Below the pieces are notes generated by a model. The model was not told the DNA's origin. It worked only from the letters and a program-made list of their open reading frames with translations, and did not search any database. A stretch of 64,000 nt of DNA, taken from NCBI RefSeq assembly GCF_028993575.1, contig NZ_CP118615.1:6663001-6727000 (forward strand), written 5' to 3'. Of the stretch, positions 51,817 through 63,752 are shown piece after piece. Origin of the DNA: Micromonospora cathayae (GTDB lineage Bacteria > Actinomycetota > Actinomycetes > Mycobacteriales > Micromonosporaceae). How positions within the stretch are numbered: position 1 is the stretch's first letter; every line of letters starts with the position of its first letter. The translations under genes were made by a program, and so were the position numbers.

Positions 51817-53019
51817 TCACGGATTGCCTGTCTTGCGATAGAGATCGTCGATGGCGTTACGGGTGCGTTCCTCGCTGGCCGGCATCAAGTGCGTGTAGAC
51901 CCGGAGCGTGAAGCCGGGGTCAGCGTGGCCGAGGTACGACGCGAGGGCCTTGATGCTCTCCCCTGCGTCGAGCAGCGACGAGGCGTAGAAGTGGCGCAGC
52001 GCGTGCATCCCGGTCGCCCGGGTCGGCGTGATGCCGGCCGCCACGACAGCCGGTCGCCAGCTCTTGTCGTCGAAGGTACGCCGGTTGATCGCGCCGCGCC
52101 GGGTGGTGGTGAACAGCAGCGGCACTGTGACCCGTTCGTCGCTGGCCGGGTTCTCCCACGGCAGGGTGAGCGACACCGGGGCGAACTCGTCGACGTGCTG
52201 CCGCAGCACCAGGGCGACGGAGTCGGGCAAGGGCACCCGGCGGTCCCGGTCGTTCTTGGGCAGCCCGAAGACCAGCCGGGACCGGACAAGCTTGACCTGA
52301 CGCGAGACGTGCACCCAGCCCGCATCGAAGTCGATATCGTCGACGCCGAGCCCAAGGATCTCCCCCTGCCGCAGTCCGCACCCCGCGCCGAGGTCGACCA
52401 TCGGCCGGTACCGCTGGGCGAGGCCGCCGCGGATTGCCGAAACCTGTTCGTACCGCCACGGCACCACCCGACGCTGAACCGGTCGCGGAGGCTTGACCGA
52501 CTTTGCCGAACACGGGTTCTTCGCGATCCGTTCGTCGTCAACCGCCGCGCCGAGGATCGTTCGCAGGTGCGCGAAGACAACGGCTCTGGTCGCCGGAGCC
52601 AGCTTGTCGACCATGTCGGCGTCCCACTCCCGGATGTGGCCCGGCTTGATCGCCGCCAGTTGCCGAGAGCCGAAGAACGGCAGCAGGTGCTTCCGTACCC
52701 GGAATTCCGTGCTCTCCCGGGTCGACTCGTCGAACGAGCGCGTCCGGAGCCAGGTTTCGGCGTACTCCATGAAGGTCATCCGGCCGGCAAGCGGGTCGAC
52801 GTAGGAGCCCCGGAGCTTGTCCGTCTCGGTCGAGACAAGGAACGCCTCAGCGTCCCGCTTGGCTCGGTCGGGGAACGATCGGCTGCGCTCCCGTCCGTCC
52901 GGCCCGATGTAGCGGACCCGGTACCGCAGTCCCTTGCCGAACCGTTCAGACTTCACCCGCTCGGAACGGCCGCCAGGGTGCCGAACGACGTTGTACCAGC
53001 GATCTTCGACGTGGCCCAT
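51817..53019 (-). CDS. int: Tyrosine site-specific integrase
   Basis: The 400-residue recombinase integrates and excises the element. It has an N-terminal AP2-like arm-binding part (YRVRYIGPDGRERSRSFPDR), a core-binding SAM-like domain, and the catalytic domain. The active residues are visible: Arg in GCGLRQGEILGL (about 216), His/Arg in MHALRHFYASSLL (about 338), His in YLGHADP and the nucleophile Tyr in RVYTHLMP (about 374). Its ATG overlaps the excisionase stop by one base (TGATG), so the two are translationally coupled. It appears intact. Confidence 0.95.
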   Translation of the reverse strand: MGHVEDRWYNVVRHPGGRSERVKSERFGKGLRYRVRYIGPDGRERSRSFPDRAKRDAEAFLVSTETDKLRGSYVDPLAGRMTFMEYAETWLRTRSFDESTRESTEFRVRKHLLPFFGSRQLAAIKPGHIREWDADMVDKLAPATRAVVFAHLRTILGAAVDDERIAKNPCSAKSVKPPRPVQRRVVPWRYEQVSAIRGGLAQRYRPMVDLGAGCGLRQGEILGLGVDDIDFDAGWVHVSRQVKLVRSRLVFGLPKNDRDRRVPLPDSVALVLRQHVDEFAPVSLTLPWENPASDERVTVPLLFTTTRRGAINRRTFDDKSWRPAVVAAGITPTRATGMHALRHFYASSLLDAGESIKALASYLGHADPGFTLRVYTHLMPASEERTRNAIDDLYRKTGNP

Positions 53020-53201
53020 CAGGCTGCCGCCGCCTGCTCACGGAACCACTCTCGGACCGCTTCCGGCTCGTACCGCAGGTGTCGACCGACCCGAGCCGCC
53101 GGCGGACCGTACTTGACCTTGCGCCAGCGGTACAGCGTCTCCTGTGGCACCCGCAGGTACGCCGACACGTCCCGAACCGTCCAGAGCCCCTCGTTCGCCA
53201 T
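53019..53201 (-). CDS. xis: Excisionase-like helix-turn-helix protein
   Basis: The 60-residue protein (MANEGLWTVRDVSAYLRVPQ, then ETLYRWRKVKYGPPAARVGR) is a MerR-like Xis fold with a wing (HLRYEPEAVREWF). It should bend the attachment site so that int can excise the element. It lies between rep and int, with one-base overlaps on both sides (TGATG). The order rep-xis-int on one transcript is characteristic of pSAM2-like elements and links replication with excision. Confidence 0.92.
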   Translation of the reverse strand: MANEGLWTVRDVSAYLRVPQETLYRWRKVKYGPPAARVGRHLRYEPEAVREWFREQAAAA

Positions 53202-54952
53202 CACTGCCCCTCCCCCGTCGTACTTGCCGGCCCGTTCGTCGTCTCGTCCGCGTGTGGTTGTGCCGCCCGGTCCTTGGCGGCGAGGAGTTCGGAGCGCCAC
53301 CGGACGCGCTCGCTGATCGAGCGCAGGAGTCGGTGTGCCAGCGACGGCACGTCGGCGTCATCGGGGCGCGCCAACTCCCAGGCGTGACGGACCGGTTCGA
53401 CGGTGGCGCCCTGGTGGTCGACGCCGTCGAGGCCGACCGTGGTGCCGAGCAGTGCCTTCACCCAGGCGCGTACGTCGTGTTTGTGGTCGGAGAGGGTCTT
53501 GCCGGACCAGTCGCGGGAGATGAGGATGCGCCGGCCGCCGATGCCGAGGGTGTCGCGTTGGTGGACCTTGCCCTTGCAGCGGCCCGGCTTGAGCTTCGCG
53601 TGCGCCTTCTTCGGCTGGACGCCATAGAGCAGCCAGTTCGCACACCGGTCCGTGCACGGGGTCACCTGGAGCTGTTGCCAGAGCCGGTCGAGGTGCGCCC
53701 GCTGCCGACCGCTGGTCATCTTGTGGCAGTCGCCGGTCTGCTTGGTGATGTACTTCGTGACGTACCGGATGGTCCGCTCAGCGTCGGCGGTGCCGGGCAT
53801 GACGCCGCGTGCGTCGACCTGGACGCCGAAGCGAACCACGTGCACCGGTTCGGCGTCCGGGTCGTCGTCGATCTCGTCGAGCGCTTCGTTCCACGTCAAC
53901 AGCGGTAGGCCGGTGTCCGGGTCGACCCACGTCCCAGCCTGGTCGTCCCACACGGGCAGGCGGTCGAGGGTGTACCGCTGAACGTCGACGGACGGCCACC
54001 AGACCTGGTGATACGTGGCCGCCGCCACGGTCCGCAGCACGTCGCGGGGGATGGTTCCTCGGATGGCGAAGTGGGCGTGTGGGGCGAGGCGGCGTTGTGG
54101 CTCGACGCAGCCGGCGTACTGGACGTTCCAGCCCTCACAGCGGCGCAGGTTCTGCCAGAACCGGTCGAGGAGCCGGGGGAAGTGGACGGCGTCCCAGGCT
54201 GCTCGCCGGTAGTCGTAGCGGTCAGGGTTGACCGGGGTGCCGTCCGGGCGGACCGGCCCGTACGAGTCGAGGGTAAGCGTGAGCCACATCGACGGCCGGT
54301 AGGTCGACCCGTCCGGCGCGGTGTACGTCTTGCCGACCGTGCGCCGCTCGACCTTGCGCTGAGGCAGCTCCGGGGCGTCCTGACGCCGCTTGGTGGACCG
54401 CTTGCGCCGCCGTCCGGTGTCCTCGTCGCCCTGGTCGTCATCCACGCTGCCGTGAGGAGGAGCTACCCGACCGCGCAGACCTTCCGCCGTGATGGCGTCT
54501 TCCACTTCCCGGATCGCCTCGTCGATGTCTTCGACCTGGTCGTACTGGCAGGCACGGGAGGCTTCGTCGCGGGCGAACTCCAGATGCCCGCGCAGCAGGA
54601 TGAGCGCCTTCTGTTCCTCGGTGGCGGGTGCCGGTGGGGGTAGGGGTTCGTCGTCGCGGTGCCAGCCTTCCCGGATCTGGGCCTGCCGCAGGCGCCGGTT
54701 CTTCTTCGCACACGGCGCGCACTTGTCCTCCCGGGTCGCCCCGCACGGCAGGTCGATCACCTCGGTCAGCCCGGTTTCCAGATCGGTCCGCCGCATGGCG
54801 AGGGGACGCACGCAGACGCCGTACTCAGCGGCGATCTCCTTGAGCACGTCGACCGAACGAGGAAGCGCCATACGGGCCGCCCGCGACCCCGGCCGAGGAG
54901 CAGCAGCCGAGGCCGGGGCGGGTTCGAGACCGGGCAGGGTCGGAGCCGTCAT
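53201..54952 (-). CDS. repSA: RepSA-type rolling-circle replication initiator
   Basis: The 583-residue protein nicks the double-strand origin to start rolling-circle replication of the excised element. Features seen are a CGATREDKCAPC cysteine cluster near residues 74-85, a basic linker (RRRKRSTKRRQDAPEL), and the HUH-like motif PHAHFAIRG near residue 292. YVTKYITKQT near 398-407 contains the likely catalytic tyrosine. The start ATG overlaps the end of the DUF2637 gene. A 35-bp near-copy of its first codons occurs at 47.85 kb. It looks complete. Confidence 0.92.
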   Translation of the reverse strand: MTAPTLPGLEPAPASAAAPRPGSRAARMALPRSVDVLKEIAAEYGVCVRPLAMRRTDLETGLTEVIDLPCGATREDKCAPCAKKNRRLRQAQIREGWHRDDEPLPPPAPATEEQKALILLRGHLEFARDEASRACQYDQVEDIDEAIREVEDAITAEGLRGRVAPPHGSVDDDQGDEDTGRRRKRSTKRRQDAPELPQRKVERRTVGKTYTAPDGSTYRPSMWLTLTLDSYGPVRPDGTPVNPDRYDYRRAAWDAVHFPRLLDRFWQNLRRCEGWNVQYAGCVEPQRRLAPHAHFAIRGTIPRDVLRTVAAATYHQVWWPSVDVQRYTLDRLPVWDDQAGTWVDPDTGLPLLTWNEALDEIDDDPDAEPVHVVRFGVQVDARGVMPGTADAERTIRYVTKYITKQTGDCHKMTSGRQRAHLDRLWQQLQVTPCTDRCANWLLYGVQPKKAHAKLKPGRCKGKVHQRDTLGIGGRRILISRDWSGKTLSDHKHDVRAWVKALLGTTVGLDGVDHQGATVEPVRHAWELARPDDADVPSLAHRLLRSISERVRWRSELLAAKDRAAQPHADETTNGPASTTGEGQ

Positions 54953-55536
54953 CGGACGATCCCCACGACGGCCGGACGGGACGGGTGCACCACACGCGGC
55001 GGCAACACCACCGGAGCCACCGGTTCAGACACCGGAACCGGAGCGGGTACCGGAGCCGGCACAGGCAACGGCTCAGTCGGAGTCAAGACGGGTTCCGCGT
55101 CGGCCTGGTCGACGTGGACCGGTTCTGGTGCCGGTTCAGTCAAGGGCCGCTTGACGGCCGCCGGGGTGGCGGGAGCACCGGAGAGGACGACCTTGACCAG
55201 GGCGAGGAACGCCAACGACGGCACCGCCGCCACGATCCAGCCCCACACGGACGGCTCAGCCTCAGCGACTTGGGCAGCCAGCGACAGGAGCGCGAACGCC
55301 ACCAGGAGCGAGGCGACCAGGCCCACGGGGCGACCGGCCCGACGACGGGCACGGAGTTCCAGGCCGAGGTAGATGGCCATCAGCTCGACCGCCACCGCGT
55401 TGGCCCAGCCGATCCAGTGCGGCTGACCGTGCGCGACGCTCAGGTCATGGACGTGGGTGAAGGCAGCGGCCCCGGCCATCCCGCCGATGACGAGCAGGAT
55501 CACGACCCGTACCGCCGATTCGGTCCGGTGGTTCAC
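54949..55536 (-). CDS. DUF2637 membrane protein, SpdB-like spread protein
   Basis: The 195-residue protein has four transmembrane helices in its first 120 residues (VVILLVIGGMAGAAAF, AVAVELMAIYLGLELR, ASLLVAFALLSLAAQ, AAVPSLAFLALVKVVL). A Pro/Val/Glu-rich cytoplasmic tail follows. DUF2637 proteins are the spd-type genes of Streptomyces plasmids and AICEs, which spread the element through the recipient mycelium after transfer. Its stop overlaps the rep start by four bases (ATGA). Confidence 0.88.
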   Translation of the reverse strand: MNHRTESAVRVVILLVIGGMAGAAAFTHVHDLSVAHGQPHWIGWANAVAVELMAIYLGLELRARRRAGRPVGLVASLLVAFALLSLAAQVAEAEPSVWGWIVAAVPSLAFLALVKVVLSGAPATPAAVKRPLTEPAPEPVHVDQADAEPVLTPTEPLPVPAPVPAPVPVSEPVAPVVLPPRVVHPSRPAVVGIVR

Positions 55537-55721
55537 TGGTCGCCCTCCCGCTTCTCCCGGATGGTCAGGTCGATACGGATGCGCCGGCCGTGCATGTCCC
55601 GGCGACGGCGGATCAGCTCAGCGAGCCCGCGCAGCGCGGCGGCGGTCTGGTCGGCCGGGCCGACGAGCTGCACGCGCAGCGGGAACCGGAGCCGGTTGAT
55701 CAGGTACGTCATGGGGTTCAC
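55533..55721 (-). CDS. Small basic protein of the transfer operon
   Basis: A GTG at 55721 after GGAGGTGACC gives 62 residues, very basic (RGLAELIRRRRDMHGRRIRI), with no domain recognised. A later ATG at 55712 is possible. It is coupled to the DUF2637 gene by a four-base overlap (GTGA). Small unnamed genes at this place are common in AICEs and may belong to the spread functions. Confidence 0.65.
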   Translation of the reverse strand: MNPMTYLINRLRFPLRVQLVGPADQTAAALRGLAELIRRRRDMHGRRIRIDLTIREKREGDQ

Positions 55722-55725
55722 GGGG

Positions 55726-55980
55726 TCACCTCCGGACCGGTCGGATGTCGATGCGGATGTGGTCGGGCGGAGCGCCGAGGGAGGCGACCGCTTCGGAGAG
55801 GCAGCGCCACAGCGCCCACGCCTCGTCGGGGGTCAGGGACATCCGTCGACGACCGCTCCCGACCGCGAGATAAACCGGGTACGGGTCGGGCCGTTCGGCG
55901 TCGACGCGGACGGATACGGCCGTGACCGGTTCAGGGGTACGGAGCCGGTAGAACCGGCGACCGTTCGGGGTGTTGGTCAT
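55726..55980 (-). CDS. Small protein of the transfer operon
   Basis: The ATG at 55980 gives 84 residues. The chain alternates beta strands and a helix (VTAVSVRVDAERPDPYPVYL, then SLTPDEAWALWRCLSEAVAS). No family is recognised. It overlaps the translocase stop by four bases (ATGA), so it is translated with it. The position suggests a helper of transfer or spread. Confidence 0.68.
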   Translation of the reverse strand: MTNTPNGRRFYRLRTPEPVTAVSVRVDAERPDPYPVYLAVGSGRRRMSLTPDEAWALWRCLSEAVASLGAPPDHIRIDIRPVRR

Positions 55981-57569
55981 CGGGCCGCACCCCCGCCGTC
56001 CCCGTCGAGCAGGTTGCGCAGCGAGTCGGGCAGCAACGGCCCGAGCGGCTTGCGCGGCAGCGGAGGCCGGACCGGTTCGTCGGCGGTTTCCCGGCCGACC
56101 TGGGCGAGGATGTCGGCCGCGTCGGCCGGAGCCGGGTACTGCGCGGCCATGTCCCGGATGTCGCTGTCGCTGACGAAGGAGAACCGGACCCGAACCGGGT
56201 CGGGGGTGCCGTCGAGGATCACGTACCCGACGCCCTTCGCCCATCGGGGCATCTGGTCGGCCAGCGCGCCCCGGTTACGGGCACCGTCGCCAAGGACCAT
56301 GTCCACCTGGGCCGCTTCGGTCAGCCCGAGCGCGATGCGGGTCGGGAACAGGTCCCGGAACGGCAGGACTTCCTTGCGCGGGTCCTGCAACGCCGCCACC
56401 ACCAGGACGCCGACCCCGGCACCCTGCGACAGCAGCAGCCCCAGCGACGAGGCGATCCGCTTCCGGAGGTCACCGTCTTGCAGGTACGCGGTCAGCGCCG
56501 CCATCTCGTCGACGACGACCACGACCAGGGGGTCACCCTCGGTCGGCGTGTGGACGCGAACCGTGCCGGCGAGCCGAGCCTGACGCTCCCGCAACACGTC
56601 GACCGCCTCATCGAGCAGGTCAGCCATCGCCTCGAAGGACTTGCAGGCGAACCGCGCGAACATCGGCCGCCCGAGCGCGAACTCCATCCCGCCCTTGGGA
56701 TCGATCACCCAGAGCCGGACCAGCCCGGAGGCGACGCCACCACTGAGCGCACGGACCAGCGACCAGAGGACGGAGCCCTTGCCGCGCCGGGTGGCCCCGC
56801 CCACCAGGACGTGAGTGGCGAGCAGGTGCAGCGACCAGGTACGCAGGTCTTCCCGCCGAGCCAACGGCAGGGCGGTGAAGTCCGGCACCGCCGGCACCGG
56901 GAACGGTGGCACGACCGTCCGCAGCGCGTCGGTACGCACCAGCGCCAGGTAGACGACGGTAGGCCGGTCCCGGAAGCGCACCCGATCGACCGCCCGGAGC
57001 AGCCAGGCAGCCCAGCCGGTACGGGTCGGCGGATCGTCGGGGCGCTCGGAGTAGACCCGGGCGTGCCGCCGGCCGAAGGCGTAGGCCAGGTTGGCGCTCA
57101 CCTTCTGGAACTGTTCGGGGGTCTGGCCCCGGACCATCCGGATCGTCAACACGTCGAGCGCCTGATCCGAGCGGACCCGGAGGAGTTCCGGCAGGACCCG
57201 CCGATGGTCGTACGTCTCGGCGAGCCCGCAGAGCGTCATGGCCTCACGCCAGACCCGCCGGTACACGAACACGCGACGGACGAAGCCGAGCAGTGGACCC
57301 GCCAACCAGGCCCACCAGGACGACTCGTGCCGCCACCACCAGGCCAGCGACACCGCCGCCAGCAGCGCCAGCGGCACCACCAGGCCGGGCCAATCGAACT
57401 CGACGTACAGGGTCACCGCCAACGCCGCCGAGGCGGTGGCAACCGGGTGACGCAGGCACCACCACCCCGCCCGCCAGGACCAGCGGAGCAGCAGCCCGAG
57501 TACGACCAGCCAGGCCGGCAGCTCGAACCGCTTGGGCCGGATCACCAGGAGGTCACCGGCCGAGGTCAT
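55977..57569 (-). CDS. traSA: FtsK-like DNA translocase (TraSA/TraB type)
   Basis: This motor pumps double-stranded DNA into the recipient, the single protein that suffices for Streptomyces conjugation. The 530-residue protein has two or three N-terminal membrane helices (LPAWLVVLGLLLRW; PVATASAALAVTLYVEF) and a FtsK/SpoIIIE ATPase. Walker A is GGATRRGKGS near residues 258-267, and Walker B is VVVVVDEMAAL near 350-360. The WVIDPKGGMEFA box and QDPRKEVLPFRDLFPTRIAL follow. The ATG at 57569 is chosen because upstream codons have no hydrophobic or basic character. No wing-helix clt-binding domain is obvious at the C-terminus. Confidence 0.92.
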   Translation of the reverse strand: MTSAGDLLVIRPKRFELPAWLVVLGLLLRWSWRAGWWCLRHPVATASAALAVTLYVEFDWPGLVVPLALLAAVSLAWWWRHESSWWAWLAGPLLGFVRRVFVYRRVWREAMTLCGLAETYDHRRVLPELLRVRSDQALDVLTIRMVRGQTPEQFQKVSANLAYAFGRRHARVYSERPDDPPTRTGWAAWLLRAVDRVRFRDRPTVVYLALVRTDALRTVVPPFPVPAVPDFTALPLARREDLRTWSLHLLATHVLVGGATRRGKGSVLWSLVRALSGGVASGLVRLWVIDPKGGMEFALGRPMFARFACKSFEAMADLLDEAVDVLRERQARLAGTVRVHTPTEGDPLVVVVVDEMAALTAYLQDGDLRKRIASSLGLLLSQGAGVGVLVVAALQDPRKEVLPFRDLFPTRIALGLTEAAQVDMVLGDGARNRGALADQMPRWAKGVGYVILDGTPDPVRVRFSFVSDSDIRDMAAQYPAPADAADILAQVGRETADEPVRPPLPRKPLGPLLPDSLRNLLDGDGGGAAR

Positions 57570-57595
57570 CACCACTTCACCGCGAGGCCGCCGGA

Positions 57596-57778
57596 TCACT
57601 TGGCACCTCGCAGCGACACGAACCGCCCCGATGCGTCCCGCACCGGAGGGAACGGAAGGACGAGCTGACCGATGCAGCCGACGCACCGGCCGTCCTCACC
57701 GGTCGTGGAGTCGAACGGGTTGCGGCACACCGAGCACCGAGGCCGGCCACGGCCAGCCGGACGCCTACGCTTGGACAC
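57596..57778 (-). CDS. Small zinc-ribbon protein
   Basis: The 60-residue protein has two CxxC knuckles (RCSVCRNPF and GRCVGCIGQ) separated by 15 residues, a treble-clef zinc ribbon, flanked by a basic N-terminus. It lies 26 bp before the translocase start. Similar short ribbons are frequent in AICE transfer operons. A nucleic-acid binding role is inferred from composition. Confidence 0.78.
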   Translation of the reverse strand: MSKRRRPAGRGRPRCSVCRNPFDSTTGEDGRCVGCIGQLVLPFPPVRDASGRFVSLRGAK

Positions 57779-57870: not shown

Positions 57871-58272
57871 CTACGCCGCCGCCTTCTGCTTGCCGGCCAT
57901 GCCCGCCGGGGTCCGCAGCCCGGTCGCCCGCAGCGAGTACGCCATCCGGCCGTTGTTCGCCACGTACGGCGTGACGGTCATGCCGTCGAACTCCACCGCC
58001 TCGAAGGGCGTGCCCGTCGGCGGAACCGGCTGGTAGTCCGCCGAGATCTTCACCGTCGTCTCACGCGAGCGCTTGCCCAACTCCGGGTCGAGATCCATCA
58101 CCCGGACCTGCCACACGCGCTGGCCCGTCACCTTGTCCTTGGCCGGCGAACGCCGACCGGTCTTTTCGTCGTAGTCCTCGACCTCACCCAGCGACTCGGG
58201 CACCAACGCGCACCCCGCCGGGAACACGTCCTCGAATCGCACGGCGAACCTCGTACCGCCACGCAGAGCCAT
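57871..58272 (-). CDS. pra: Pra-type activator of replication, integration and excision
   Basis: In pSAM2, Pra turns on the rep-xis-int operon and so starts excision. The 133-residue protein has the family pattern VRFEDVFPAGCALVPESLGE, then RSPAKDKVTGQRVWQVRVMD, KISADYQPVPPTG and VEFDGMTVTPYVANNGRMAYSLRATG. These fit what I recall of proteins annotated as plasmid replication, integration and excision activators. CAGGAGG upstream of the ATG at 58272 is excellent. It is divergent from the GntR repressor, with repeated operator sites between them, as in pSAM2. Confidence 0.9.
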   Translation of the reverse strand: MALRGGTRFAVRFEDVFPAGCALVPESLGEVEDYDEKTGRRSPAKDKVTGQRVWQVRVMDLDPELGKRSRETTVKISADYQPVPPTGTPFEAVEFDGMTVTPYVANNGRMAYSLRATGLRTPAGMAGKQKAAA

Positions 58273-58292
58273 TGCTCAACCTCCTGACTTCA

Positions 58293-58402
58293 CCTGACTA
58301 ACCTGACTAGCCAGGTGGTGTGGATCAAAGGTAGGCCGGCTTGGCTAGTCATGTCAACGACAGTGGCGGAACTTTCCTAGCTTGGCTAGTCAGCGGTACT
58401 CT
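58293..58402. promoter_or_regulatory. korSA/pra intergenic operators and leaderless korSA promoter
   Basis: CTTGGCTAGTCA occurs at 58340-58351 and 58381-58392, 41 bp apart. The inverted form CCTGACTAGCCAGG is at 58302-58315, with a second CCTGACTA half at 58293-58300. TACTCT (58397-58402) is a likely -10 box only 6 bp before the GntR ATG, so that mRNA should be leaderless. One operator covers this promoter and another lies near the pra side. KorSA is known to repress both genes in pSAM2. Confidence 0.82.
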
Positions 58403-58408
58403 CCGCGC

Positions 58409-59251
58409 ATGGCTCTTGACCCAGATGACCCCCGCACCCCGTCGCAGCAGATCGCGGCCACACTGCGCGCCGAGATCAAGACGGGGAAGTTCTCCCCCGG
58501 CGAGAAGCTGCCGTCGCAACACGACCTCGTCGAGCGGTTCAGCGTCGCGCGGGAGACGATCAAGGCAGCGTTGCGGAAGCTGCAAGAGGAACGGCTGATC
58601 GTCACCCGGCAGGGCAGCGGCACGTTCGTCCGCGCCAACACGGAGCGCCCGGTCGGGCTACGGCCCCACGTAGAGCGCGCTTTCGAGGCCACGAACGTCA
58701 CGATCGACTTCGCCGGCTTCTCCGGAGAGACGCTGTACAACGCGATCCAGGAGACGTTGGACAAGGTCCGCATCGGCCGACTCACCCCGGAGTCGATCCG
58801 GGTACGGGTCCTGATCTCCGACATGACCGCCCCGATGGCGATCCCCTGCCGCGCCGAGGACCAGGCCGACGACCCCGATGTGCGAGCCCGAGCCCGCCGC
58901 ATCACCGACCGGTCGATCCACGCCGTCACCGACGCCGTACAGGAGCTTGCAGACCTGGGGTTGGTCAAGACCGCGACCACCGAGGTACGGGTTCACAAGG
59001 CCGCGCCGCTGTTCAAGCTGTTCATCATCAACGAGCAGGAAGCTTTCTTCGGCTTCTACCCGGTCGTCGAGCACACCGTGAACATCGACGGCAAGCCGGT
59101 GGCGATCTACGACGCGATGGGCAAGGACGCGATCCTGTTCCCGTTCACGCCCAGCGACGAGGACACCAGCAATGACGCCCTCTACGTCGAGCAGGCCCGC
59201 GCCTGGTTCGACAGCATGTGGGGCACCATCTCGCGGGAGTACACCTCGTGA
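58409..59251 (+). CDS. korSA: GntR-family repressor, KorSA-type, with PLD-like sensor domain
   Basis: The 280-residue protein has an N-terminal GntR winged helix (SQQIAATLRAEIKTGKFSPG, then LPSQHDLVERFSVARETIKA, RQGSGTFV). The C-terminal 190 residues (VRVLISD, ARRITDRSIHAVTDAVQELA, FKLFIINEQEAFFGFYPVVE) match, in order and spacing, the C-terminal domain of the regulator at 60466-61221. That domain resembles a phospholipase-D-like nucleotide or ligand fold. pSAM2 KorSA has about 259 residues. It should hold the element in the integrated state by repressing pra. Its stop overlaps the HAD gene (GTGA). Confidence 0.88.
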   Translation: MALDPDDPRTPSQQIAATLRAEIKTGKFSPGEKLPSQHDLVERFSVARETIKAALRKLQEERLIVTRQGSGTFVRANTERPVGLRPHVERAFEATNVTIDFAGFSGETLYNAIQETLDKVRIGRLTPESIRVRVLISDMTAPMAIPCRAEDQADDPDVRARARRITDRSIHAVTDAVQELADLGLVKTATTEVRVHKAAPLFKLFIINEQEAFFGFYPVVEHTVNIDGKPVAIYDAMGKDAILFPFTPSDEDTSNDALYVEQARAWFDSMWGTISREYTS

Positions 59252-59937
59252 CCGCCGCTGATCTGGCCGCCGTCGTCGACCGCGCCCGCGTGATCCTGCT
59301 CGACTTCGACGGCCCGGTGTGCAGCATCTTCGCCCAGCACCCCGCGTCGGTCGTCGCCCACCGGTTACGCAAACTCCTCGTCGACCAGGCCGTGACCCTG
59401 CCGACCGAGATCCTGAACGAGCCCGACCCGCTCGCCGTGCTGCGCTTCACCGCCACGCTTGGCCGCCCGGCCGTCGTCCGACTGGTCGACGAGGCCATGA
59501 CCCGCGAGGAGGTCACCGCGGCCCGCACCGCCGAGCCGACCCCGTACGGGCGGGAAGTCATCGTCGCTGCCCAGCAGACCGGCCGCTTGGTCGCCGTCGT
59601 CTCGAACAACTCAGCCCAGTCGGTCCACGCCTACCTGAACGCCCGCCGGCTCACGTCGTACGTTCACCCGGTCATCGGTCGGCCCGAGGCCGCGCCCGAG
59701 CGGATGAAGCCGGACCCGTTCCCGGTGCTGGCCGCCGTGCGGGAGCTGGGCGCCGAGCCGAAGGATTGCGTCCTGGTCGGAGACTCGGTCAGCGACATCG
59801 AGGCCGCCCAGGCCGCCGGAGTCGCCGCCATCGGGTACGCCAACAAGCCCGGCAAGCACGAACGGTTCGCCGCCGCAGAAGCCGTCATCGACAGCATGGC
59901 TGAACTGGTGGCCGCTTTCGCCGTCGACGAGCTATAG
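59248..59937 (+). CDS. HAD-superfamily hydrolase
   Basis: The 229-residue protein has all four HAD motifs: motif I LLDFDGPVCS, motif II VVSNNSAQ, motif III KPDPFP and motif IV VLVGDSVSDIEAA. It has a helical cap of phosphoglycolate-phosphatase type. A phosphatase acting on a small phosphorylated molecule is expected. It is coupled to the korSA-like gene by a four-base overlap, so the repressor and hydrolase are made together. The hydrolase could destroy or form the ligand sensed by the repressor, which is an inference. Confidence 0.9.
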   Translation: MTAADLAAVVDRARVILLDFDGPVCSIFAQHPASVVAHRLRKLLVDQAVTLPTEILNEPDPLAVLRFTATLGRPAVVRLVDEAMTREEVTAARTAEPTPYGREVIVAAQQTGRLVAVVSNNSAQSVHAYLNARRLTSYVHPVIGRPEAAPERMKPDPFPVLAAVRELGAEPKDCVLVGDSVSDIEAAQAAGVAAIGYANKPGKHERFAAAEAVIDSMAELVAAFAVDEL

Positions 59938-59995
59938 CACCACACTCCGCACACGAGCGCCCCGGGAATTCGGCACCGGGGCGTTTCTCGTGTCG

Positions 59996-60463
59996 TCAGT
60001 CGACGTGCGGCATACGGCCCGCAAGGTAGTCCGCGATCTGGCGCCGCATCGTCGGATGGATGTCGAGCCCCGCCAGCTCATCGGGACGGAACCAGCCGAC
60101 GTGACTCGCCTCGTCGTTCGGAGCACAGGCCCCGCCCACCGGCCGCGCCAGCAACGTGACCTCGTACTCCTGACGAACCTCGCCGTCCGAGTACGCGATG
60201 ATGTGGCCCGGGTCGGAGTAGACGCCGAGGAGGCCGGTCACCTCGACCTCGACCCCGGTCTCTTCCAGGGTTTCCCGAATGGCGCACTCGGTCGGAGTCT
60301 CCCCGATCTCCATCTTCCCCATCGGCAACGCCCACTGACCGGTGTCCCGCCGACGCTGGAGCAGGATCGCGCCCTGGTCGTCGACGGCCAGCACGCCGCA
60401 GGCCGGAACCAGGGTGTTCGCCTTGGGCGCATCCGGGACGTTCCAGTACTCCACACGTCCCAC
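59996..60463 (-). CDS. Nudix hydrolase, possible Pif-type transfer-immunity protein
   Basis: The 155-residue protein has a full Nudix box (GKMEIGETP, then RETLEETGVEV) and flanking strands (GVLAVDDQGAILLQRRRDTG, EYEVTLLARPVGG). Nudix proteins hydrolyse nucleoside diphosphate-linked substrates. In pSAM2 the immunity gene pif encodes a Nudix-motif protein that blocks redundant transfer, so that role is a good candidate here. GGAGG before the GTG at 60463 decides the start over a longer frame. It lies two bases after the stop of the next regulator gene, in one operon with it. Confidence 0.88.
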   Translation of the reverse strand: MGRVEYWNVPDAPKANTLVPACGVLAVDDQGAILLQRRRDTGQWALPMGKMEIGETPTECAIRETLEETGVEVEVTGLLGVYSDPGHIIAYSDGEVRQEYEVTLLARPVGGACAPNDEASHVGWFRPDELAGLDIHPTMRRQIADYLAGRMPHVD

Positions 60464-60465
60464 CG

Positions 60466-61221
60466 TCAGACCTCCGCTCCCTGCCACGGCACCGCCGTAG
60501 CCCACACCCGGTCGAAGCTGTTCACGTAGTGCTCGAAGAGACCGCCACCGTCGAGCCTACGGAAGTGAAACGTCGGGTTGGCGCTGGCCGCCTCGCCGTA
60601 TGCGTGAGGGTTCACCAACACCTCGTCGTCGTACCGGAAGAGACTGTTGTAGAGCGTCGTCGGGTGTAGCCGGATCTCGCAGCCGTCGACGCCGGCCAAC
60701 TCCCGGTAGTACGTCAACGCCGCCCGGATCTTCGCGCCCAGCGTGCCGCCGAGCTGTTCCTCCCGGTCGCGCACCGCCACGGCATCACTCGCCGGATCAC
60801 CGAAGCAGAGCCGGACCTGAACGCCCACCGACAGTCGGTCGGCCAGCATCCGAGCCACCCGAGGCTGTGTCTGCGCGAAGAAGGTCCCCGAGTACACGAG
60901 CACGTCTATCCGTTCCTGCGCCTCAGACAGCAGCCGCAACCACAGCTCACGCGGCACCGACGCCCGATCCGGGTAAACCTCGATCAGCTCAGCCCGACTT
61001 GCCTCACCACGCCGGCCGTTGGCAGCCGCCACCACTTCCGGCCACAGGTACGCCTCTTCTGCCCCGAGCCGACGCGCCGCCGACCAACGATGCCGCCGAT
61101 GCGGAACCCGCCCGAGGTTGATCCACCGTTCCACCGTTTTCGGGTCGACGCCGCATTCATCGGCCAGGTCCTCAACCCTAATACCGCGACGCACCATGAC
61201 AGTCCGAAGACGTTCATTCAT
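60466..61221 (-). CDS. Helix-turn-helix regulator with PLD-like sensor domain
   Basis: The 251-residue protein starts MNERLRTVMVRRGIRVEDLA with an XRE-like helix-turn-helix (ECGVDPKTVERWINLGRVPH). A long domain follows: QERIDVLVYSGTFF, VQVRLCFGDPASDAVAVRDR, LTYYRELAGVDGCEIRLHPT, YNSLFRYDDEVLVNPHAYGE. This parallels the C-terminal domain of the GntR protein. Such domains are known from actinobacterial DUF5919-type regulators. Its stop lies 2 bp before the Nudix gene. Two copies of GGACGTTTC lie upstream and may be its operator. Confidence 0.82.
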   Translation of the reverse strand: MNERLRTVMVRRGIRVEDLADECGVDPKTVERWINLGRVPHRRHRWSAARRLGAEEAYLWPEVVAAANGRRGEASRAELIEVYPDRASVPRELWLRLLSEAQERIDVLVYSGTFFAQTQPRVARMLADRLSVGVQVRLCFGDPASDAVAVRDREEQLGGTLGAKIRAALTYYRELAGVDGCEIRLHPTTLYNSLFRYDDEVLVNPHAYGEAASANPTFHFRRLDGGGLFEHYVNSFDRVWATAVPWQGAEV

Positions 61222-61246
61222 TCTTCTATTGGACCTTTTCGAGGCG

Positions 61247-61276
61247 GGACGTTTCAACCCCGTCCCAGGACGTTTC
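61247..61276 (-). promoter_or_regulatory. Two GGACGTTTC direct repeats upstream of the second regulator
   Basis: GGACGTTTC occurs at 61247-61255 and 61268-61276, 21 bp apart, two helical turns. They lie 26-55 bp upstream of the regulator's start on the minus strand. They suit binding of the helix-turn-helix protein as a dimer in tandem. Confidence 0.6.
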
Positions 61277-61423
61277 GCAAAAGGCGAAGGCGTCTGGCGA
61301 CAGTCCGACCAGGCGGATGAATCGTGCGGGCAAAACCGGTTGACTCAACATAGCCGCAACCCGAACTCCCTGGTTTCGTGCTCGCCGCAATGGCCGCGAG
61401 ACGAGGCGAGAAAGCGGCTCGGG

Positions 61424-61460
61424 CGGGGTGCGGGGAGCAAGCGGTCTACCCCGCACCCCG
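61424..61460 (+). other. Perfect 12-bp hairpin upstream of a small ORF
   Basis: CGGGGTGCGGGG (61424-61435) pairs perfectly with 61449-61460 across a 13-base loop. It ends 20 bp before the ATG at 61481, next to the GGAGG ribosome site. It may limit translation or terminate upstream transcription. Confidence 0.6.
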
Positions 61461-61796: not shown

Positions 61797-63569
61797 CTAC
61801 TGGTCCTCCTGCAGGAACTTATGCACGCGGTCACGAACCCACTGAAGCTGATCACAGTCATCGGGGACAGGCGCGAGCGCCCTTTCCTGCTCACTCAGCA
61901 CATCCGAGGATGTTACAATTTCCCAATCCTCGCGCCCGAGTGCTTGGCGGGTTCGCTCTAACCACTCGCTTTTCGGGTCCGCCGCCTGAGCTAGACCCTC
62001 CATGTCCATAAGAAGCGCCTCGGGCGTACTTCCCGGCATAAAGTCAAGGTTACTGTCACACCACGACAACACCTGCCGCAACTGGCTTTCTTTCTGACCT
62101 GGGACAGATGTTCCCGAGGAACCATCCAGAGGAAGCGTAACCTTGCACTGCAGCAGCTCAAATACCGCTTTCTCGAGATCTACGTCTGGAACAGCCGAGG
62201 GCGACCCAGGAGCGGTGGCCGGCCGCTGATCGCCGTCCAGAAGAAGGAGACAACGCTTGCGCTCCGTCAAGGCAAAATTCGGAAGAAATTGGGCCTTGAT
62301 CGAACCTGCGCCCCCGGGAAGAACCCTAACCTCAAGCCGCGAGTTTGCAGCCTGACCCAGCTTCCTCGCCGCTTTCCGGACGATGGCAGCAGCAAGCACG
62401 TCCTCGACATACACCGTCCATTTCTCTTTACTGTCAACGCCTAAACGAAAAAATGCTTCAGACTGCTCCGACTCCTGTGCGACCAGATCAACCTTCCCAT
62501 CCGTCTCGCCCCGTTGGAAAACTTTGATGGCACAGGCAGGAAGGCCCCGAATGATCTGAGGCGAGTGAGTCGAAATGACTACTTGGAGTTTTCTCCGTTT
62601 AGCCTGATCCGAGATAAAAGCCATCAGCTTTTGCTGCGCACCCGGATGCAGCGACACCTCCGGCTCATCAAGAAGGATCAGAGAGCTAGGAGGCGCTGCG
62701 GCAATGGACTTCACCAGCATCACCACAGCGAACTCTCCGCTACCGGCAAATGCCTCCGAGTACCTCAGGTCAAGCGACCTCATGATAACTGTGGCGCCCT
62801 GCACGTCGAAATAGCTGTGCATCAGAATTTGGATCGAGTCGTATTCCCGGCCAAGGATCTCGGATATGGCAGCCGTAAGCTCGCTGTCCAGCGTAACGGC
62901 TGGCTGCACGATCCTCTCCGACTGATAAAACGTGTGGCTCTTTCGTCGGGTTAGAAGCGATCTTGCCACGTGGGATGAGCGCTTCCGAATCAATGCCTTC
63001 TTTGCTCCAAGCACTGCCGATTTTCTCCGGCTCGGGACATGGAAGAAGTACTTGTCATAGGCAGACAACTCCGACCGGAAATCGAGGTAGACCACACTTT
63101 TTGCAATGGCCTTCCATCGAGTAGCGGTTCTCTCCGGCGGCATCGGGTCACCAGGCTTCGAAGGAGGCATCCTCTGCATCCCATCCTGGAGAATCGGCCT
63201 TGCAGGTTCCCAGTAGTCCGGATCACCTTCACGGGTTATCCGGGATTTGACCACTTCTACAACCTCACCAACAGACTTCGCCAGATAACCGTAGATAAAC
63301 CGATGCCTGTCAGCCGTCCGGATAGGGTCAAGATTCGTAGAGAACCAATACTGGCCAAGGTTTGCGTTCTCAGGACTACCCTGTAGCGCCCTCAAAATAG
63401 CCGTCTTGTTCGTGCCGTTGGGACCGACCAGAACCGTGACTGGATGCATGAACTCGATGCGCGTTCCATCCCTCAGTCCGCGGAAACGTGGAAATCGGAT
63501 GTAACGGATGAAAGGTTCAAAGAGGCCAGCAGCGAGCATTTTGGCTAGGTCGGTGTGCACCTTGTCCAT
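61797..63569 (-). CDS. OLD-like ATPase with Toprim-type C-terminus
   Basis: The 590-residue protein has an N-terminal RecF/OLD-type ABC ATPase: Walker A VGPNGTNKTAIL near residues 47-58, an ABC-like signature (AFAGSGEFAVVML) near 273-286, Walker B SLILLDEPEVSLHPG near 290-305 and ISTHSPQII. The last 200 residues carry Toprim-type elements: an acidic VYVEDVLAA, then LLLLDGDQRP. Walker A is GPNGTNKT, where most family members have GxGK(S/T), so the glycine before the lysine is replaced by asparagine. OLD-family nucleases include phage defence proteins (P2 Old, Gabija GajA). GGAGGG before the ATG at 63569 sets the start. Base composition is below the host average. Defence is an inference. Confidence 0.85.
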   Translation of the reverse strand: MDKVHTDLAKMLAAGLFEPFIRYIRFPRFRGLRDGTRIEFMHPVTVLVGPNGTNKTAILRALQGSPENANLGQYWFSTNLDPIRTADRHRFIYGYLAKSVGEVVEVVKSRITREGDPDYWEPARPILQDGMQRMPPSKPGDPMPPERTATRWKAIAKSVVYLDFRSELSAYDKYFFHVPSRRKSAVLGAKKALIRKRSSHVARSLLTRRKSHTFYQSERIVQPAVTLDSELTAAISEILGREYDSIQILMHSYFDVQGATVIMRSLDLRYSEAFAGSGEFAVVMLVKSIAAAPPSSLILLDEPEVSLHPGAQQKLMAFISDQAKRRKLQVVISTHSPQIIRGLPACAIKVFQRGETDGKVDLVAQESEQSEAFFRLGVDSKEKWTVYVEDVLAAAIVRKAARKLGQAANSRLEVRVLPGGAGSIKAQFLPNFALTERKRCLLLLDGDQRPATAPGSPSAVPDVDLEKAVFELLQCKVTLPLDGSSGTSVPGQKESQLRQVLSWCDSNLDFMPGSTPEALLMDMEGLAQAADPKSEWLERTRQALGREDWEIVTSSDVLSEQERALAPVPDDCDQLQWVRDRVHKFLQEDQ

Positions 63570-63752
63570 GAGCCCTCCACCTTCACCTTCCCCGCACCAG
63601 CGGGAAGCCGAGTCAGCGCCGAGCCATCGTACTGGCAGCCGGAGCCACAACCACGACAGTCCTCGGTGGACTCGCCGGCCAGTTCAACGACCGGCACTGG
63701 AGCCGATGTCCCTGGGCTCGCTACAACTCACTGTCAAGTACTATCCCCACCC

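What the first reader, a model, noticed from the sequence alone, without database searches (positions are those of the whole stretch)
58409..61221. Two different DNA-binding proteins sharing one sensor domain, bracketing a HAD and a Nudix enzyme
The GntR (korSA-type) and helix-turn-helix proteins differ in their N-terminal domains but have parallel C-terminal halves: a V(R/Q)VxLxxD strand, a long helix, then LYNSLFRYDDEVLVNP-like versus FKLFIINEQEAFFGFYPV. Between them lie two phosphate-ester enzymes, a HAD and a Nudix. I propose a small-nucleotide circuit in which the enzymes make or remove a ligand read by both regulators, tuning excision and transfer immunity.
Basis: inference. Interest (0 to 1): 0.72.

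Follow-up and report, generated by a model that had tools for sequence, protein, structure and literature searches.

The report
Paired repressor-and-hydrolase cassettes controlling mobile element
A self-transferring DNA element of a soil bacterium carries two small control units, each pairing a DNA-binding switch with a phosphate-cutting enzyme, and the two unrelated-looking switches share a distantly related sensor-like domain, which suggests that such elements may decide when to transfer by reading a small molecule that their own enzymes process.

Summary
The four genes are real, and the shared C-terminal domain holds up as remote homology. Profile comparison of the two C-domains gives P 5e-5, and P 6e-9 once DUF5919 relatives are added; shuffled and unrelated controls stay much weaker. 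Both C-domain types also occur fused to the same third N-terminal domain, each keeping its own enzyme next door.

The four genes are not one conserved circuit but two separable pairs. GntR-HAD is adjacent in 80 of 80 loci, with a 4-base stop/start overlap in 74. HTH-Nudix is adjacent for 38 of 44 HTH genes. The full set was seen in 5 of 299 other family genomes; three more have GntR-HAD-HTH without room for Nudix.

Either pair often lies divergent to AICE transfer genes. Upstream of GntR are three palindromic operator-like sites; HTH has different ones. Both enzymes keep their catalytic residues.

My reading: alternative modules of repressor plus ligand-processing enzyme. Ligand, repression and immunity are inferred. 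'korSA-type' fails for the C-domain: no UTRA match.

The parts
58409..59251 (+). GntR-type regulator P0001: winged-helix N-domain plus C-domain of the DUF5919 superfamily (about residues 85-280)
   Evidence: Pfam GntR 4e-20, no UTRA; C-domain profile match to HTH/DUF5919 C-domains
59248..59937 (+). HAD-IA-type hydrolase P0002; start overlaps the GntR stop by four bases (GTGA)
   Evidence: Pfam HAD_2 1.5e-16; next to GntR in 80 of 80 loci, 4-base overlap in 74 of 80; D19, D21, S119, D179, D183 in 81 of 81 and K154 in 80 of 81
59996..60463 (-). Nudix hydrolase P0003 (start at 60463 is my choice; longest frame begins at 60505)
   Evidence: Pfam NUDIX 4.7e-22; Nudix box in 41 of 41 relatives incl. 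this one; next to HTH in 38 of 44
60466..61221 (-). HTH regulator P0004: N-terminal helix-turn-helix plus DUF5919-superfamily C-domain (about residues 87-257)
   Evidence: Pfam DUF5919 sub-threshold here, 45 of 45 relatives at E up to 0.1, best 5.7e-6; profile match to DUF5919 proper P 6.4e-16
58302..58315 (.). operator-like palindrome 1 (TTGGCTAGCCAA type) upstream of GntR
58340..58353 (.). operator-like palindrome 2
58381..58394 (.). operator-like palindrome 3
61247..61275 (.). two GGACGTTT operator-like repeats (61247 and 61268) upstream of HTH
57871..58272 (-). Pra-like gene P0005, divergent from GntR
   Evidence: relatives annotated 'plasmid replication, integration and excision activator' (39% identity) and 'transcriptional regulator' (62%, pMR2); no Pfam hit
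51817..57686 (-). AICE core: tyrosine integrase, RepSA-type initiator, DUF2637 protein, FtsK-like transfer protein
   Evidence: Pfam

Best explanation
The stretch holds two alternative AICE control cassettes side by side. Each is a two-gene operon: a DNA-binding protein with a DUF5919-superfamily C-terminal domain, and a phosphate-ester hydrolase encoded directly after it. Shown: the pairing and its conservation, homology of the C-domains, conserved catalytic residues, and distinct operator-like sites upstream of each regulator. Inferred: the GntR protein stands in KorSA's place and represses itself and the divergent pra-tra-rep-int genes; its C-domain senses a small anionic, probably phosphorylated, molecule; the co-made hydrolase removes (or makes) that molecule, so that a resident element stays repressed until the signal exceeds the enzyme's capacity or the element enters a cell without the enzyme. 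HTH-Nudix is a second device of the same kind, with its own operators, which in other elements occupies this position alone.
For: HAD next to GntR in 80 of 80 loci, 4-base overlap in 74; Nudix next to HTH in 38 of 44. C-domain homology with controls; 13 positions with the same residue in both window proteins and conserved in both families, several Arg/His/Asp. Domain exchange: the same third N-terminal domain carries the GntR-type C-domain followed by HAD (L076) and the HTH-type C-domain followed by Nudix (L115, L116, L117). Catalytic residues conserved. Operator-like sites: 2.41 per GntR upstream v 0.07 shuffled and 0.03 elsewhere in the same loci; GGACGT 1.81 v 0.11 for HTH. Divergent Pra-like or FtsK-like gene in 61 of 80 and 33 of 44. 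Gene order as in the KorSA region (PMC8584621, passages). Kinase-family gene after HAD in 11 of 80 (Pfam on one); kinases or glycosyltransferases beside regulators at this place in other elements.
Against: No ligand, no repression and no enzyme activity was tested. Two Nocardia plasmids have the GntR-type regulator with a glycosyltransferase instead of HAD, and three family genomes seem to keep HTH without Nudix; six of 44 HTH genes have no Nudix next to them. DUF5919 proper alone does not match the GntR C-domain above shuffles. Only 26 of 80 GntR loci show a recognisable Pra-like gene. The GntR-type domain exchange rests on one gene in 397 genomes. Loci are the best 80 of 556 relatives, so partly closely related.
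Confidence: 0.45

Rival explanations
1. The hydrolases act on their own, Nudix as a Pif-like exclusion factor and HAD as a clean-up or exclusion enzyme, and share an operon with the repressor only because both are needed in the integrated state. The C-domain does not sense their substrate or product.
For: Pif of pSAM2 is a Nudix protein that acts in the recipient to prevent redundant transfer (PMC3218068, passages). HTH appears to persist without Nudix in three genomes.
Against: C-domain type goes with enzyme type even when the N-terminal domain is exchanged; pairing 80 of 80 and 38 of 44.
Confidence: 0.25
2. The C-domain is only an oligomerisation or accessory DNA-contact domain without a ligand.
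For: Phospholipase D motif absent in 165 of 165 and 117 of 117 sequences, so no catalytic role of that kind; palindromic, repeated sites fit oligomers.
Against: Conserved charged residues shared by both families are more than packing would need (inference); linkage to small-molecule enzymes.
Confidence: 0.18
3. The pairs are toxin-antitoxin-like or defence modules, the enzyme being harmful unless repressed.
For: Overlapping two-gene operons on a mobile element; kil-kor systems exist in AICEs (PMC8584621, passages); weak PADLOC candidate match PDC-S07 for Nudix (8.5e-11).
Against: Large C-domain on the regulator, enzymes of common hydrolase families; no PADLOC system named for the pair.
Confidence: 0.07

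Closest known systems
KorSA of pSAM2 / SCO3932 (GntR, HutC subfamily with UTRA domain)
   Same: GntR winged helix; divergent beside a pra-type gene in the order regulator, pra, tra, rep, int (PMC8584621 passages)
   Different: No UTRA match in P0001; the C-domain belongs with DUF5919-type domains; coupled to HAD
Pif, the Nudix immunity factor of pSAM2
   Same: Nudix protein on an AICE (PMC3218068 passages)
   Different: Sequence of Pif was not fetched or compared; immunity untested here; this Nudix is tied to an HTH-DUF5919 regulator
mdp-nud-xre cluster of Frankia AICEs, Sco5349, pMEA100 and pSE211
   Same: XRE regulator with Nudix in AICEs (PMC3218068 section 13); a Streptomyces plasmid relative of P0004 lies with NUDIX and HD-domain genes
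   Different: No HD gene in this window stretch; whether that xre is of the P0004 family was not compared
DUF5919 (PF19319)
   Same: Profile-profile match of the HTH C-domain P 6.4e-16
   Different: P0004 itself is below the Pfam cut-off; the GntR C-domain matches only through the merged profile
HTH-plus-Nudix gene of Streptomyces ICE01, likened by its authors to the cI repressor family
   Same: HTH and Nudix combined on a conjugative element (PMC9513070 passages)
   Different: There one gene carries both domains; here two genes; not compared by sequence

Membership tests
KorSA (GntR/HutC-UTRA) | GntR winged-helix N-domain | tested here: met
   PF00392 4e-20
KorSA (GntR/HutC-UTRA) | UTRA C-domain | tested here: not met
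   no PF07702 among matches at E up to 1 for P0001; a UTRA regulator at the same place in another element does match (L276, 5.3e-20)
KorSA (GntR/HutC-UTRA) | represses pra | not testable with these tools
   only operator-like sites in the divergent intergenic region
Pif-type immunity Nudix | intact Nudix box | tested here: met
   41 of 41
Pif-type immunity Nudix | relation to Pif by sequence | not tested
   Pif sequence not fetched
Pif-type immunity Nudix | blocks redundant transfer in the recipient | not testable with these tools
   needs matings
DUF5919, HTH protein | match to the domain model | tested here: met
   by profile-profile comparison P 6.4e-16; single-sequence Pfam score 21.3 is below the cut-off 23.5; 45 of 45 relatives at E up to 0.1
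DUF5919, GntR protein | match to the domain model | tested here: inconclusive
   no Pfam match; DUF5919 proper alone 22.3 v shuffles up to 26.7; merged with HTH type 60.6, P 5.7e-9: superfamily relation, not membership
Phospholipase D superfamily | HxKx4D motif | tested here: not met
   0 of 165 and 0 of 117
Phospholipase D superfamily | fold | tested here: inconclusive
   weak PLDc_2 hits in 28 of 45 HTH relatives, best 1.1e-4; hhalign to four PLD halves prob 22 for HTH type and 0.4 for GntR type; structure prediction unavailable
AICE | integrase, RepSA-type initiator, FtsK-like transfer protein together | tested here: met
HAD phosphatases | motifs I-IV | tested here: met
   D19, D21, S119, D179, D183 in 81 of 81, K154 in 80 of 81

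The most novel reading that the evidence does not exclude
AICEs carry exchangeable mate-sensing cassettes. A repressor with a DUF5919-superfamily domain reads a small phosphorylated signal, and the co-made HAD or Nudix enzyme (in other elements perhaps a kinase or glycosyltransferase) destroys or makes it. A cell that holds the element erases its own signal; a cell without the element does not. Repression, induction on meeting an element-free partner, and conjugal immunity would then be one circuit, and different sensor/enzyme pairs would define different immunity groups.
Probability: 0.25. Interest if true: 0.87.

Novelty: new variant of a known kind. Interest (0 to 1): 0.6.

Why it matters
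How the Nudix protein Pif causes conjugal immunity was stated in 2011 to be unknown (PMC3218068, passages), and in 2021 the effector of KorSA was stated not to have been identified (PMC8584621, passages). If AICE regulators and hydrolases form sensor/enzyme pairs, both questions become testable with purified proteins and simple matings. It would also give DUF5919, named in no paper of the held library, a role in control of mobile DNA.

Tried and rejected
Direct comparison of the two regulators by BLASTP found nothing useful, and full-length profiles were weak. Only C-domain profiles with diverse members worked. DUF5919 proper alone against the GntR C-domain failed to beat shuffles. Phospholipase D fold: inconclusive; of 11 loci fetched for it, only 4 gave a usable sequence with the motif as I searched it. 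Slips mended: one search used a too strict motif and dropped many HTH relatives (replaced); the shuffle control printed the wrong column (repeated); lost 21 HTH loci through name padding (one search is the count used).

Four-gene circuit rejected as the general rule. Sixty loci anchored on high-scoring RepSA matches (roughly every second row of the first 120 listed) hold the HTH-Nudix pair in 8 (HTH without Nudix in 2 more), full GntR-type regulator in 0, both in 0. Twenty loci anchored on initiators like the window's own hold neither pair (contigs of L275, L281, L289 and L292 end within about 8 kb). Defence reading: PADLOC names no system for the pair. Promoter and terminator scans of 58200-61450 found none. 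Phages: for P0001 20 records, none covering 80% of the query, the 10 listed only in its N-terminal part; for P0004 one record.

Literature: searches (listings). The three papers listed hold 'haloacid dehalogenase' 0 times. I found no description of a GntR-HAD pair; this covers open-licence papers only. PMC7690428 was seen only as a reference-list passage; Possoz et al. 2003 on Pif was not seen at all.
Full report
What is there. The window carries an actinomycete integrative and conjugative element (AICE): tyrosine integrase, RepSA-type initiator, DUF2637 protein and FtsK-like transfer protein read leftward. A small gene (57871-58272) ends this block on the right. Its three plasmid relatives include one annotated 'plasmid replication, integration and excision activator' (39% identity) and one 'transcriptional regulator' (62%, pMR2), so I call it Pra-like. 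The four genes of the finding follow: GntR and HAD rightward, Nudix and HTH leftward, converging on them. The order regulator, pra, tra, rep, int is that described for the SCO3932 (KorSA-like) region (PMC8584621, passages).

Two pairs, not one set. A HAD relative directly follows GntR in 80 of 80; stop and start share four bases in frame in 74 of 80. A relative of the HTH protein is in 1 of 80 (L121, Plantactinospora alkalitolerans), there with Nudix in the window's arrangement. For the HTH protein, 41 loci hold 44 HTH genes; Nudix is next to 38. Three of the six misses are second HTH copies in a locus with a complete pair, and no relative of HAD or of the full GntR protein was found in these loci. 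In 300 genomes of the family, the stretch matched as a whole in the window's own genome and in 5 of 299 others (G510, G505, G460, G451 as one alignment, G417 as two). In three more (G347, G506, G511) the listed coordinates leave no room for Nudix between HAD and HTH (my reading of coordinates, list cut at weak matches). So the composite recurs but is rare beside the separate pairs.

Similar position, other contents. A Pra-like or FtsK-like gene lies divergent beside GntR-HAD in 61 of 80 loci (Pra-like recognised in 26) and beside HTH-Nudix in 33 of 44. Other elements fill this place differently: a GntR protein fused to an AAA_33 P-loop kinase plus a second kinase-like gene (L288, Pfam; L287 alike by eye), or a UTRA-type GntR with a glycosyltransferase (pMR2 as annotated; L276 UTRA 5.3e-20; L273 and L280 alike by eye). 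In 11 of 80 GntR-HAD loci a gene of one family directly follows HAD; the member tested is an APH-family kinase (L132, APH_6_hur 2.7e-11). Distant GntR relatives on Streptomyces plasmids lie near genes annotated as HAD and aminoglycoside phosphotransferase family. Two Nocardia plasmids have a glycosyltransferase after the GntR-type regulator instead of HAD.

One sensor-like domain. Profiles of the C-terminal parts alone (165 GntR-type and 117 HTH-type sequences) align over 146 columns, score 36.8, P 5.4e-5, prob 67. Without hybrid and plasmid sequences the score is 39.5, P 1.9e-5. Unrelated families from the same loci reach at most 21.0 in 14 comparisons and 100 column shuffles at most 23.3. 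L218, a clear DUF5919 protein (4.6e-29), has 410 relatives, 120 listed. Their C-domain matches the HTH type strongly (P 6.4e-16). It matches the GntR type only weakly on its own (22.3; 60 shuffles reach 26.7). The merged DUF5919-plus-HTH profile matches the GntR type with score 60.6, P 5.7e-9, prob 96, where 100 shuffles reach 29.4 and 7 unrelated families 17.9. Thirteen aligned positions carry the same residue in both window proteins and are conserved in both families, among them R133/R149, D138/D154, R159/R163, R194/R196, H196/H198, F267/F248 and W271/W252; two further columns agree in consensus only.

Domain exchange. In G014 (L048 and L076 are the same gene) a third N-terminal domain, presumably DNA-binding and without a Pfam hit, is fused to the GntR-type C-domain (58% identity to P0001, E 2e-86), with HAD downstream. 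In L115, L116 and L117 the same N-terminal domain (L048 v L115: 54% over 114 residues, E 2e-40) is fused to the HTH-type C-domain (L115 v P0004: 43%, E 2e-48), with Nudix downstream. In these few cases the enzyme type goes with the C-domain type although the N-terminal domain is changed. The GntR-type hybrid was found in 1 of 397 genomes, so this is one event on that side.

Operators. In 81 GntR upstreams, sites within three changes of the palindrome TTGGCTAGCCAA average 2.41 (3 sites in 41, 2 in 23, 4 in 4, 1 in 10, none in 3), against 0.07 in shuffles and 0.03 in 738 windows elsewhere in the same loci; in the window they start at 58303, 58341 and 58382. In 52 distinct HTH upstreams, GGACGT averages 1.81 (two or more in 27), against 0.11 in shuffles; the window has two GGACGTTT sites. 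The sites differ, so the two regulators probably do not share one regulon.

Enzymes. HAD motif residues are kept in 80 to 81 of 81 sequences and the Nudix box in 41 of 41. Nearest solved structures by sequence include phosphoglycolate-phosphatase and CbbY-type HADs, and MutT, NudI and ADP-ribose-type Nudix proteins. No substrate can be named. The C-domains lack the phospholipase D motif throughout; relation to that fold is open.

How it probably works. Pif is reported to act in the recipient against redundant transfer (PMC3218068, passages) and KorSA to repress pra (PMC8584621, passages). With what is known of GntR repressors, the simplest reading is a repressor with a sensor domain whose ligand is processed by the co-made hydrolase. 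Pairing, overlap, homology and operator-like sites are shown. Repression, ligand and immunity are inferred. The boldest form, a mate-sensing circuit in which element-bearing cells erase a signal, is not excluded.

Novelty. The sections and passages that I saw describe GntR, XRE and Nudix genes in AICEs and an mdp-nud-xre cluster (PMC3218068 sections 12 and 13 and passages; PMC11706625 passages), and one HTH-plus-Nudix gene likened to cI (PMC9513070 passages). None of what I saw describes the GntR-HAD pair or a common C-domain. DUF5919 is named in no paper of the held library.

Noticed in passing
window 61797-63650 (-): OLD-like AAA ATPase next to the HTH cassette (PADLOC candidate HEC-04 1e-36); a close relative (616 bits) lies just after GntR-HAD in L071. 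Possible defence cargo.
   Followed up: partly
L288:9919-11324 and L287: Beside the Pra-like gene: GntR fused to an AAA_33 P-loop kinase, followed by a second kinase-like gene.
   Followed up: partly
L307 (pMR2), L273, L276, L280: UTRA-type GntR with a glycosyltransferase near the Pra-like gene in AICE cores like the window's own.
   Followed up: partly
L270, L306 (Nocardia plasmids): GntR-type regulator of the P0001 family (47-49% identity) followed by a family 2 glycosyltransferase instead of HAD.
   Followed up: partly
L304 (Streptomyces phage Alderaan): XRE regulator 31% identical to P0004 over 93%, next to a Cro-like regulator, the place of an immunity repressor.
   Followed up: no
L079 (own genome, about 1.77 Mb): The host carries a second HTH-Nudix pair near another RepSA-type initiator.
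   Followed up: partly
L048, L115, L116, L117, L218 (N-terminal parts): A conserved N-terminal domain without a Pfam hit, fused to both C-domain types.
   Followed up: partly
L271 (Streptomyces plasmid, 18 kb): XRE, NUDIX and HD-domain genes together, with a protein annotated as GGDEF domain nearby.
   Followed up: no
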